DNA of 64,000 nucleotides, taken from contig OX387609.1 in assembly GCA_947568835.1 (NCBI GenBank), positions 13,509,708-13,573,707 of the forward strand, given 5' to 3'. Below the pieces are notes generated by a model, which did not search any database, was not told the origin of the DNA, and saw only the letters and a program-made list of their open reading frames with translations. Within the stretch, counting starts at the first letter, position 1; every line of letters starts with the position of its first letter. The stretch is from Protonemura montana (Eukaryota > Arthropoda > Insecta > Plecoptera > Nemouridae). A program made the position numbers and the translations under genes. This document shows positions 8,601 to 50,000 of the stretch, piece after piece.

Positions 8601-11600
8601 CAAATAAGTATTGATTGCCAAGTCAAGCTGTTTTGTTAAGTGTACTAAAATACATTCAAAGATGACAGAAATATGACCCCATAAACAAGACATTACACTA
8701 CAATCAATCAATCAGTATCAATAATCAATCATATAGAGAAGAAAAAATTCAAAAAATTGGAGTAGAATTACATGCTTACAATAAGATTGCCATAAATTCA
8801 AGTTTAATTTTACTCGATGACTTATTCCATGAAGTAACGATCAGAGAGGTAGCGTAGGTTTTTAACCGTCTGTATGGGCACATAATCTAAAAACAGAGAA
8901 CTCGACAACGTCTCACTTCGTGAATCAGCCAAGAGCGTCCGCCATGTCTGTTAAAATAATGCTCTGTAATTGGTTCCATAAGCACAGAGTTGGAATAATT
9001 CAAAATTGTTAAATTCTATGCTTGTGCTTATTGCTATATCAATTGTGTGCAGTCCCATATGATAACCAAGTTTTAAGATCCTTGTGTGCTATGCTTGTGC
9101 TTATTGCTATGTCAATTGTGTGCAGTCCCATATGATAACCAAGTTTCAAGATCCTTGTGTGCTATGCTTGTGCTTATTGCTATGTCAATTGTGTGCAGTC
9201 CCATATCATAACCAAGTTTTAAGATCCTTGTGTGCTGTGCTTGTGCTTATTGCTATGTCAATTGTGTGCAGTCCTATATGATAACCAAGTTTTAAGATCT
9301 TTGTGTGCTATACTTGTGCTTATTGCTATGTCAATTGTGTGCAGTCCCATATGATAACCAAGTTTTAAGATTTTTTGTGTGCTATGCTTGTGCTTATTGC
9401 TATGTCAATTGTGTGCAGTCCCATTTGATAACCAAGTTTTAAGATCCTTGTGTGCTATGCTTGTGCTTATTGCTATGTCAATTGTGTGCAGTCCCATATG
9501 ATAACCAAGTTTTAAGATCCTTGTGCGCTATTCATGTTGTGTTGATTGTGTGCAGTCCCATATGATAACCAAGTTTTAAGATCTTTGTGTGCTAAGCACG
9601 TTGTGCTTATTGCTATGTCTATGTAATTCTAAGCTGTGCCGCGCCTACCTCTGTTTGCCATGCGAAGACGGAGAAGTCTTCCGCGTCTTGGTGCCAGGCG
9701 AAGCGCTTCTCTTGTCTACGCTGCCACTGCGTCGCCGCGTCTTCGTCTTCTCCACACTTTTGCTGCGACGCCGGGACTTATCCTTCTCCGGACTTCCGCT
9801 GCGACGTCGCGGCTTGGTCTTGTCCGGACTTTTGCTGCGACGCCCCGACTTGGGTTTCTCCGAGCTTTTGCTGCGACGTCGCGTCTTGGACTTATCCGCG
9901 CTTCCGCTACGACGTCGCGACTTGGTCTTTTCTTGACTTACGCTGCGACGCCGAGCTTTCGGCTTTTCGGGGCTTTTGCTGCAACGTCGTGGCTTATCCT
10001 TCTCCGGGCTGTTGGTGCGACGCCGCGACTTTGGCTTGTCTGAGCTGCCGCTGCGATGCCGTGGCTTGGTCTCTGCCCTCTTGTCCTTAGCCTGCAAGCA
10101 CATAAAGTGAGGTTACAGGAGGTCAAGACTCTGCAAGGAGTCTGTCCCCTTACGGAACAAGTTGTTGAAGACCTCGGCAAGGTTACTGAACTCACCCGCT
10201 GCTTCACTTTGTCTGCGTACGACGGTGGCGAAGCGGCTCGGTCGGGAGACTCTGAGTCAGAGTCGCTGGAATCTGACTCATCTGCAAGACAAACAAAAGT
10301 AAAACATGAACATACAACGTTCGCGGCACTGAGCGTGGACTTCTGGCCAACTTGGCCGTCCAATGATGAAAATGTTCAGCATTTTGATTGCTTTTAAACT
10401 CACATCTACTTGATGTAACCTTAGCTCTAGTTTTGACAAAAACTATTTGAACTGGGTTTTGAATGCTAAGTAAAGAACTAAATTTCCCAACGTTTCGTAA
10501 CTTGTGTGCCAGTTACTTTATGAAGGGTAAAAGAGGTCCTCTTGATAAAGTAACAGGTGCAAGTTACGAAACATTGTGAAATTTAGTTGCTCTTCACTTG
10601 GCATTCAAAACCCAGATCAAAAAGTTTTTGTCATGTTAAGAATTTGTTCAGCCATTTCGTAGTTTCATGACAACGGGTGAACAAATTTTAACAAAAATTC
10701 AATGAACAGAAATTACCGAAAGAGCACGCAGGTTCCCTTTCTAAAGAAAAATAAAAGATGGAAGAACAAAATAAACTATGCTCATCTACAACACAAAGCT
10801 TATTACAAGCAATTTTTTAGGAAAAATGAATCCTCACCTGCTCTCCCCGGAGCTTTGCCAGAAGAGTCGGAAGATGAGCTGTCCCGTCGTTCCCGCCATG
10901 AGGGCTTTGCCTTTGTGTTTTCCGGCTTCCGGTCGTCTGGCTTCCGGTCGTCTGGCTTCCGGTCGTCTGGCTTCCGGTCGTCTGGCTTCCGGTCGTCCGG
11001 CTTACGAGACTCGGGTTTCACAGCGTCTAGTTTCACTGCATCGGGCTTGGCGGCGTCTGGCTTGGCGGCGGAATCGGCCGACTTCTTGAAAGGGCTTGGA
11101 GTCCGGGACAAACTGCCGGGAGCCTGCTGGTATCATAAGTAGTTATATTAGATGGATGACCACCGGAGTTAAGCAACACTGCGCTGGGTCAGGTATTGGA
11201 TGGGTGACCATCATACACATGACCAGTTCTGTTTGTGAGAGAGGATGGAGCAATAAAGGTTAAGCCACACTGCTCTGGGTCAGGTATTGGATGGGTGACC
11301 ATCATGCACATGACCAATTCTGTTTGGGAGAGAGGATGAAGGGATGAAAGTTAAGCAACACTGCGCTGGGTCAGGTATTGGATGGGTGACCATCATACAC
11401 ATGACCAGTTCTGTTTGTGAGAGAGGTTGGAGGGATGAAAGTTAAGCAACACTGCGCAGGGTCAGGTATTGGATGGGTGACCATCATGCACATGACCAAT
11501 TCTGTTTGGGAGAGAGGTTGAAGGGATGAAAGTTAAGCAACACTGCGCTGGGTCAGGTATTGGATGGGTGACCATCATACACATGACCAGTTCTGTTTGT

Positions 11601-47040: not shown

Positions 47041-50000
47041 CTAGACCCCGCGATTGCGCAGGTCCTTGACTTTGTAGATGCGTACGAGCCAGTGTTCCGT
47101 CGTGTACGCCTCCTCGAGGACGTCCAACTCGAAGTCCTTATTGCCGATCTCGACTGTACGCACTCGGTCGTAGCCTGGCGGCTTGCCTGCAACAAGATTG
47201 GAACTCCTATTTAGTAGATCCTTGTGTAGCACACCTATCTTAGTTTATTGTAACGCTTGAACTTCGTACGTCTCGCTTGGCTGATTCAGATGGCAGCGTC
47301 ACCTTGAGATCTAGCTGGATGCAAGCTACAACTGTATGGATATGTCTGGTACACAGCCAAGAAGCCAGCCAACTGAACAACTTTGTGATCTAGCATACTC
47401 TAGCATACAATCAAAGATACTATTTCAAGCCCATCTACATGAATCTGTTCCATCTAGAGCTTGATATGGTATCGTCTCCCACGGAATTTAACGGACAACC
47501 CTGCAAACACGAGTCAAACTCACCGCCCTCCGTGTACACCTGTCCGAACCGGTAGTAGCACATCTTGTACATGAGCGAGTTGAGCAGCGTCGGAGAGCCA
47601 TCCTTGTCCACCCGGAACTCTCCCGCGGGAGTGTAGTAGTCCCACTCCTTGATGTGGCTTCCACGGTCCGTCGAACCACCGATACGAACCATCCAGAGGA
47701 ACTTGTTAATGTCTGTAAATCATCCCGACACGACGTTAAGAGCAAGGATCTTAAAACTTGGTTATCATTTAGGACTACACACAATTGACATAGCAATAAG
47801 CACAAGCATAGCACACAAGGACCTTAAAACTTGGTTATCATATGGGACTGCACACAATTGACATAGCAATAAGCACAAGCATAGCACACAAGGATCTTAA
47901 AACTTGGTTATCATATGGGAGTGCACACAATTGACATAGCAATAACCACAAGCATAGCACACAAGGATCTTAAAACTTGGTTATCATATGGGACTGCACA
48001 CAATTGACATAGCAATAAGCACAAGCATAGCACACAAGGATCTTAAAACTTGGTTATCATATGGGATTGCACACAATTGACATAGCAATAAGCACAAGCA
48101 TAGCACACAAGGATCTTAAAACTTGGTAATCATATGGGACTGTACACAGTTGACGTAGCAATAACCGCACTCCTGGCCGCCTCACCATCGGAAGAGTAGC
48201 CGGTGAGCCCGCCGAAGATGACGAGCACGTAGTCTACGTCCAGCTCTCGCATGATCTCGTACGCTTTCTCCTCGGTGGACGCCATTGCTTGCCCCACGCG
48301 AGATATATGCGTATTGTTCCACGTGTTGTTGTCGACTAAGATGGTGCGGTCAGCCATTGCCGTTATCTGGTAGCCGTAGTCCCACCAGGACATAACACGG
48401 GCATCCTGGACAAGAGATCACGGATTAGTTCCTGACACATGTTCGACAATCTTGTCAATGTACCTGGATGCTAACTAAGCCATAAATATTCTCATATAGG
48501 GAATGGCATATAGGTAGAGCCACGATTATATGGTGATGCGCGAAATCGCGAATTGTTCTTATCTCTTGTTATTCTTACAAATGAGTGCCATTCATTGAGT
48601 TCCCAACTCAAATATGTAAGAAGCTCATCGCGACAAAACGCGAAATTCACGAAAAATCATCCATAACAACGAAATCAACTATTTCCCGCGAAATCATCGC
48701 GAAATGAGCCTTTTCCCATCCAATTATCTTAAATTTCAGATAATCTGTTATTTTTTTTCATTTTTATCAAATCATATTTCATGGAAATTAAATAAACAAA
48801 CCCATTTGTTTTTATGCTAAATTGAGAGATAATGAAGCTATTTCACTATAATATGTGTATTTTGCGAAATAGCCACTTTTTTCCATGCAAAAATTAAGAA
48901 TGTTTATTTTATCTCTATAAACACACATTTCCATGGATTTGTCATATTCAGGTATGTTTCTCATCAAATGCTGTCAACATTCCTAAGCTTAGGGGGTAGA
49001 AGTAGTGGGGCAAAATGTTTGCTGTAGGAAACCATTGCCATTGGTTGGCTGAATCTTCCCCTCCTTACCATGTGAGCACCAGCACCACATGCATTCAATC
49101 TACCAGTTGTTAGAGATTAGCTGGGATTTCAAATTTCAATGGGGTGTAATAAATCTTTGACTTTTGAGGATCAAGCAAAGCAACTCTTTGTGAGTGATGA
49201 ATATATTTTGATGTGTGGAATCTGGAACACCAGACTTGTCTGGGAGAAAAAAGACAATCTTGCAAAGTATGTTACTACCAGGCAGTGGGTCTAATTCAAA
49301 TTCTAATGGACATAAAAATCTCAAACCCCTCATTTGCAGTTCTGACTAAGCAAACTATTTGAGCCCCTGTGAACAGTGTTGATGCAGAGAGGTATTTTTA
49401 GTCAATAAAATCTTGTGCTGACCGACAAAGGAAGAAGAATGAAGGAAGCTACCATTGAAACTTGTTCAATGTTAAGTTTTAACAAGTAGTAGGCGTCGCT
49501 CATGCTGTCATACAATGTATTTCATGGTGGCATTTATGTAAAATATTTATATGTGCTATTAATTTTGTTCCAAGTCCCTTACAAATACCTATGTTGAGGA
49601 CCTACACTAAATATTTGCTTTATTGTAATTATTATTGATCACTTTTTTATTAGAGATCCCAGTGCTTACCCTAAATCTTCATTCCTTTCGAATGTAGATC
49701 GCAAAAGCTCTTTTTTTCTATTTAGCTATAAACGCTAAAATTCAAATAATTAGCACTAAAATTTCGATAAAACTAATGCTAAAAACACGTAGTACCTTCT
49801 TTTTTCGTCACCTATGTCTGAAATCTGCTATAGACATGAAATTCTGTACTTTTTCCATAACACCGCCATAACACCGAAATCCAAAAAGCTTACCACGAAA
49901 TTATCGAAATCATAACACCATAAAATCTTGGCTCTACATATAGGGCATCCCATAGAGGGGATCCTGCATAGGGAATCACATCTGAAACTCTGAGCTCTTC

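What the first reader, a model, noticed from the sequence alone, without database searches (positions are those of the whole stretch)
9016..48165. One 73-bp minisatellite in introns of three different genes, ending at the same unit position near the donor
Arrays at 9016-9622 (SRRM1), 34537-35390 (RhoGAP) and 47745-48165 (STT3A) share one unit. The third is inverted. In all three the array ends about 18-28 nt from the donor and at the same place in the unit (CATAGCAATAA). A satellite that spreads to introns and ends in register with donors could reflect a mobile source element or an introner-like process.
Basis: partly seen in the sequence, partly recalled or inferred. Interest (0 to 1): 0.7.

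Follow-up and report, generated by a model that had tools for sequence, protein, structure and literature searches.

The report
Transposon end grown into intron minisatellite
The repeated 73-letter DNA block in introns of three genes is the end piece of an old jumping element that was multiplied in tandem and stays nearly identical at many places in this genome; it is a known type of repeat rather than a new way of making introns.

Summary
The three arrays are real: one 73-bp unit, third inverted. They belong to a large family: a 26-base core occurs 2604 times exactly and 3787 times with up to 3 mismatches in the 258-Mb genome (control 0). Array edges are phased genome-wide (34 left, 34 right edges; Kuiper p 0.004 and 0.001). 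The cause is a parent: a MITE-like DNA transposon with inverted ends CTACCCACAATTGACATAGCAATAAGC; low-copy forms carry one to two units (L055, L053, L056), others long arrays. The unit contains part of the terminal repeat, so arrays stop near element ends. Positions near donors fit insertion into short introns: in STT3A 46-51 of 473 nt are not array, and the exon join is exact. Splice sites lie outside the array, so the introner reading is not supported. Less expected: element bodies compared are 69-87% alike (20 of 21 pairs), yet units are 97.7% alike between arrays and 97.9% within. Units seem homogenised between loci after insertion. The kind is known (Tetris, Xstir, miDNA4). Target duplication, superfamily, species and intron preference remain open.

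The parts
9016..9622 (+). 73-bp array in the SRRM1-like gene (gene on minus strand)
8783..9000 (+). remnant of the element's single-copy body beside the array; similar to L031, L032, L033, L049, L054, L055
   Evidence: limits read by eye
9640..9648 (-). donor GTAGGCGCG of the SRRM1-like intron; donor base 9648
   Evidence: read by eye
34535..35390 (+).
34509..35406 (-). inferred intron holding that array: 898 nt, 42 nt not array, GT...AG, exons join in frame
   Evidence: no Pfam hit for the joined exons
47743..48169 (-). 73-bp array in STT3A, inverted
47713..48185 (-). STT3A intron, 473 nt, 46-51 nt not array; exon join matches STT3A of 6ftj without a gap
48521..49944 (.). copy of a 1.4-kb transposon that also sits inside an array at L036 (94.9% over 1424 bp)
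   Evidence: coordinates derived from the flank distance given there

Best explanation
The arrays are the amplified terminal part of an old, apparently non-autonomous DNA transposon (MITE-like). Its ends read AGGTCTACCCACAATTGACATAGCAATAAGC and the inverse. Near one end a segment of about 73 bp is bracketed by two copies of a short sequence, (C)AATTGTGGGYAG, seen in L055. Unequal exchange or slippage between them made tandem units (inferred). Copies were scattered by transposition (shown: inverted ends in dispersed copies; weak: target duplications), some into introns, where they sit between donor and acceptor. Since then units at different places have been kept alike by exchange between loci (conversion, unequal exchange or circle re-insertion; the route is inferred), while the single-copy body of each element aged.
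For: Parent: L053 has inverted ends of 42 nt (86%) around about 1.6 units; L054 has ends of 41 nt (90%), a 73-bp array in one arm and the body between; L055 and L056 are short copies with about 1 and 2 units (unit numbers by eye). The 27-nt end pattern finds 140 places with up to 3 mismatches, control 0; 40 of the listed places lie in one derived satellite on C2. Body remnants lie beside arrays in L031, L032, L033, L049, L054 and the window, and in L034 by its end (15 against a shuffle maximum of 12) and by eye only. Homogeneity: 785 units of 35 array pieces are 97.9% identical within and 97.7% between arrays; 26-mer counts are 2604, 3725 and 3787 at up to 0, 2 and 3 mismatches. Age of the body: 8 sequences, 28 pairs, 21 over the score cut (the 7 pairs with L034 fell below it); 20 of 21 are 69-87% identical, one 30-nt stretch 93%; of the 15 pairs of array-bearing copies 14 are 69-87%. 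Lone units in L053 and L055 are 85.5% and 85.7% like the consensus. L031 and L033 share one body-array junction though their bodies are 87% alike (79.5% with gaps). Outer 50 nt of 28 arrays are 95.2% and 95.1% like the unit against 98.7% inside (p about 1e-5).
Against: Identical 3-nt flanks were seen in only 2 of 7 copies with both ends read (L055 TTA, L056 TAA; not L046, L049, L053, L054 or the C11:10734464 pair). No autonomous partner: of the listed Harbinger-type transposase matches none lies within 5 kb of a listed end (by eye, lists capped). Most arrays examined show no recognisable body, and many flanks share nothing with other flanks near the array. Arrays were picked by likeness to one query or by exact core matches, which inflates between-array identity; the 26-mer counts avoid that choice but stop at 3 mismatches. 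659 of 785 units have a nearest unit in their own array (label-shuffled mean 446), so local expansion acts as well. L031 and L033 lie 79 kb apart, so their shared junction may come from a local duplication. Change is uneven over unit sites (chi2/df 9.5). The L056 units are 93% and the L054 array 97% like the consensus, so there are intermediates.
Confidence: 0.78

Rival explanations
1. Recent transposition of an array-bearing element: the arrays jumped as they are, and units are alike because the copies are young.
For: The 26-mer counts imply about 98.6% identity per base (my calculation); four arrays end exactly at ...GTGGGTAG (L035, L040, L048, L050).
Against: Bodies of array-bearing copies are 69-87% alike in 14 of 15 pairs; ends and target sites are worn; the junction shared by L031 and L033 predates 13% divergence of their bodies.
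Confidence: 0.15
2. Arrays spread without the transposon, as extrachromosomal circles of units that re-insert at short homology.
For: Many arrays show no body or element end on one side; both edges prefer the same part of the unit; within- and between-array identity are nearly equal.
Against: Body or end remnants sit beside at least 5 arrays plus L034 and L054. No circle was observed; nothing here can show one.
Confidence: 0.2
3. Introner-like process: the element makes new introns and its ends are tied to splice sites.
For: Arrays lie between exons of one gene in STT3A, ZNHIT1 (L031), ELP1 (L036) and a ZC3H12-like gene (L033), and probably in the two other window genes and a second intron of L033. 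Four donor-side ends are 16-33 nt from the donor. Some introners take both splice sites from the insertion site (Florenciella, passage).
Against: In the two introns read to both ends, donor and acceptor are not in the array and 42-51 nt remain. The second array of L033 starts 77 nt from the donor. Edge phasing holds genome-wide, for arrays whose gene context is unknown.
Confidence: 0.05
4. The units are conserved by selection for a function, for example protein binding.
For: 15 of 73 sites change in under 0.3% of 569 units and change is uneven over sites.
Against: Lone units in L053 and L055 are only about 85.6% like the consensus, and array ends are worn.
Confidence: 0.05

Closest known systems
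Tetris / TIR-220 of Drosophila virilis (PMC4079207; abstract and section 19 read)
   Same: Non-autonomous inverted-repeat element; the tandem unit shares a stretch with the terminal domain (37 bp there, 34 nt in L054 here); longer arrays exist beside full elements.
   Different: 73-bp instead of about 220-bp unit; here arrays lie in introns of genes, there amplification was in beta-heterochromatin. The age gap between body and units is the point here.
Xstir of the Xmix MITE and miDNA4 of Xenopus (passages in reviews PMC9659126 and PMC12628747 only)
   Same: MITE, composite and pure array forms; a monomer flanked by short direct repeats; arrays may lose the element ends.
   Different: Other host and sequence; superfamily here undetermined. 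Originals not read.
terMITEs of termites (title in the reference list of PMC12628747 only)
   Same: Insect MITEs cited there for expansion of short internal arrays.
   Different: Not compared.
Introners (PMC9860276; start of abstract in a listing and passages)
   Same: Many have inverted ends and target duplications and lie in introns.
   Different: They create the intron, with splice sites in the element, its target duplication or adjoining exon; here the read splice sites lie 16 nt or more outside the array.

Membership tests
MITE (non-autonomous TIR DNA transposon) | terminal inverted repeats in dispersed copies | tested here: met
   L053 42 nt 86%, L054 41 nt 90%; inverted pairs of the end pattern 0.4-0.8 kb apart on C2, C11 (two) and C14
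MITE (non-autonomous TIR DNA transposon) | target site duplication | tested here: inconclusive
   2 of 7 copies with identical 3-nt flanks; T-N-A stands before the start in 26 of 36 places outside the C2 satellite whose letters were shown (first letter limited to A, C, T; some places are two ends of one copy)
MITE (non-autonomous TIR DNA transposon) | short, without a transposase gene | not tested
   L055 spans about 0.6 kb by position; its coding content was not searched
PIF/Harbinger superfamily | mobilised by a DDE_Tnp_4 transposase that has the same ends | tested here: inconclusive
   154 matches of PF13359; none of those listed within 5 kb of a listed end, by eye
Foldback-like element with tandem repeats in its TIR (Tetris type) | unit shares sequence with the terminal repeat and is tandem within an arm | tested here: met
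   in L054 units inside one arm match the opposite terminus over 34 nt at 85-91%; L046 has head-to-head arrays
Introner | splice sites in the element or taken at its insertion site | tested here: not met
   two introns read to both ends; two more donors 26-33 nt outside the array (with 68, 70)
Introner | intron absent in relatives | not testable with these tools
   no relatives held for this genome
Introner | element biased to genes | not tested
   frames were searched in only 7 of 20 long loci (L031, L033, L035, L036, L038, L042, L045)

The most novel reading that the evidence does not exclude
Old, immobile MITE insertions, several in introns, act as homology landing sites for one circulating 73-bp unit: a satellite is rewritten at many loci by exchange or circle re-insertion, so the repeat stays young while the transposon around it decays.
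Probability: 0.4. Interest if true: 0.6.

Novelty: new member of a known kind. Interest (0 to 1): 0.4.

Why it matters
One genome holds the steps from about one unit to arrays of some 80 units (L039), and gives a clean test of how dispersed euchromatic arrays stay alike: the same insertion carries a clock that runs (the body) and one that seems reset (the units). If true, intron arrays change by replacement between loci and not only by local slippage. It also shows that phased repeat edges near splice sites can come from a transposon's own ends.

Tried and rejected
Species: the stonefly Nemurella pictetii was considered from genome size (search; first of two parts of the text read) and rejected: its longest scaffold is 37.3 Mb, C1 here is 33.1 Mb. 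A paper search by assembly size found one unrelated paper. Mitochondrial protein order suggests a pancrustacean; that is recalled knowledge, not tested.

A TTAA target (piggyBac or Kolobok type, recalled) was considered first; TTAA stands there in 6 of the 36 shown places, so T-N-A fits better. Helitron-like ends were considered for the GTAG edge and dropped when inverted ends were found. A 191-base body query found 4 places only: the body is too diverged for that search. A pattern for the body start had no match in the window. A claim of intron preference was dropped for lack of a gene survey. A candidate RhoGAP exon (33644-33907) had no PDB or Pfam match. Paper searches.

Full report
Period-73 arrays at 9016-9619, 34535-35390 and 47743-48164 share one unit. 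In the same genome (258,480,905 bases, 34 contigs, window at C12:13509708-13573707) a 26-base core of the unit has 2604 exact matches, 3725 with up to 2 mismatches and 3787 with up to 3; the reversed control has 0 each time. The window arrays are a small part of a large dispersed family.

Edges. I read 36 array pieces with cyclic alignment. Left and right edges prefer one part of the unit, with all 34 and 34 readable edges and with a trimmed set. Four right edges end on ...GTGGGTAG (L035, L040, L048, L050). A search for GTCAATTGTGGGTAG found 63 places, control 0, of which 27 lie in one satellite at C2:27684654-27686549. Two pairs in opposite orientation led to the parent: L053 and L054 are bounded by inverted copies of this end. 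The longer end pattern has 140 matches with up to 3 mismatches, control 0, again with the satellite (40 of the listed places).

Parent element. L055 (C11) reads TTA|AGGTCTACC ... GGTAGACCT|TTA and L056 (C14) TAA|AGGTCTACC ... GGTAGACCT|TAA. L055 has about one unit, bracketed by GATTGTGGGCAG and CAATTGTGGGTAG; L053 about 1.6; L056 about 2 (by eye). The longest array read is 5855 bp (L039). L054 holds the body between a 73-bp array and a TAGTGC array. Body remnants lie beside arrays in L031, L032, L033, L049 and at window 8783-9000, and more weakly in L034. A body match at C16:19249576 lies 124 bases from an end match. Five other copies with both ends read do not have identical 3-nt flanks, so the target duplication stays open. 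Two arrays are broken by other transposons with 8-nt duplications, L041 (ATGCTTGT) and L036 (TCAATTGT), read; calling them hAT is recalled knowledge.

Genes. STT3A: the exon join across 47713-48185 gives a protein that matches 6ftj without a gap. A PWI exon at 26919-27152 fits SRRM1, but the link to 9 kb was not traced exon by exon. Outside the window: in L031 the array lies between two ZNHIT1 exons (the upstream exon by a recalled motif), its end 33 nt from the donor (by eye). In L036 it lies between frames of the first and second ELP1 propeller. In L033 the first array splits a Zc3h12a-type nuclease domain at profile position 33 (upstream 2-33; downstream 33-136; PDB match), and a second array follows the next CCCH exon. 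L053 lies beside a CCCH exon (makorin is recalled). Of 10 frames, 5 belong to L031, L033 and L036, one (L042, IQ motif) leaves intron status open, and 4 had no hit.

Introner test. In the two introns read to both ends, 46-51 nt and 42 nt lie outside the array, with both splice sites in them. The simplest reading is insertion into short introns, where the middle tolerates it best; that short introns are usual in this species is inference.

Age difference. Units are 97.9% alike within and 97.7% between 35 array pieces (785 units; L033 and L036 count twice, and L019 and L020 share a flank). Bodies are 69-87% alike in 20 of 21 pairs over the cut, of 28 possible; one 30-nt stretch is 93%. Lone units in L053 and L055 are about 85.6% like the consensus, those of L056 93%, the L054 array 97%. 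Array ends are worn in 28 arrays (the loose scoring may take in a few flanking bases). Together this points to exchange between loci. Against it: arrays were chosen by likeness, local relatedness exists (659 of 785), and L031 and L033 lie close together.

Comparison. Tetris (abstract and one section) is the nearest kind; reviews list Xstir and miDNA4 (passages). The listings of searches showed no paper on this family; without the species name that is weak evidence.

Noticed in passing
window 11167-11600 and 32890-33695: 91-bp minisatellite that looks derived from 5S rRNA (recalled likeness); a 25-base core has 34180 matches with up to 2 mismatches genome-wide, control 0. A 5S rRNA family match lies at 54893-55011.
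   Followed up: partly
window 35987-36565: 53-bp minisatellite; a 25-base core has 4479 matches genome-wide with up to 2 mismatches, control 0.
   Followed up: partly
G000 C2:27684654-27686549: Satellite with spacing mostly 38 bp whose unit contains the outer end of the same element, so a second part of it has been amplified.
   Followed up: no
L054 1411-2266: The other arm of this copy has grown a TAGTGC hexamer array.
   Followed up: no
G000 C14:1568765-1646925: Seven transposase matches spaced about 12986 bases apart, which suggests a 13-kb tandem array.
   Followed up: no
G000 C4:5760925-5762262: COX1 match with the same score as the one on contig C34 (15,885 bases, probably the mitochondrion); a recent nuclear copy or an assembly fault.
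   Followed up: no
window 22817-22889: tRNA-like sequence with anticodon cta, perhaps a tRNA-derived relic.
   Followed up: no
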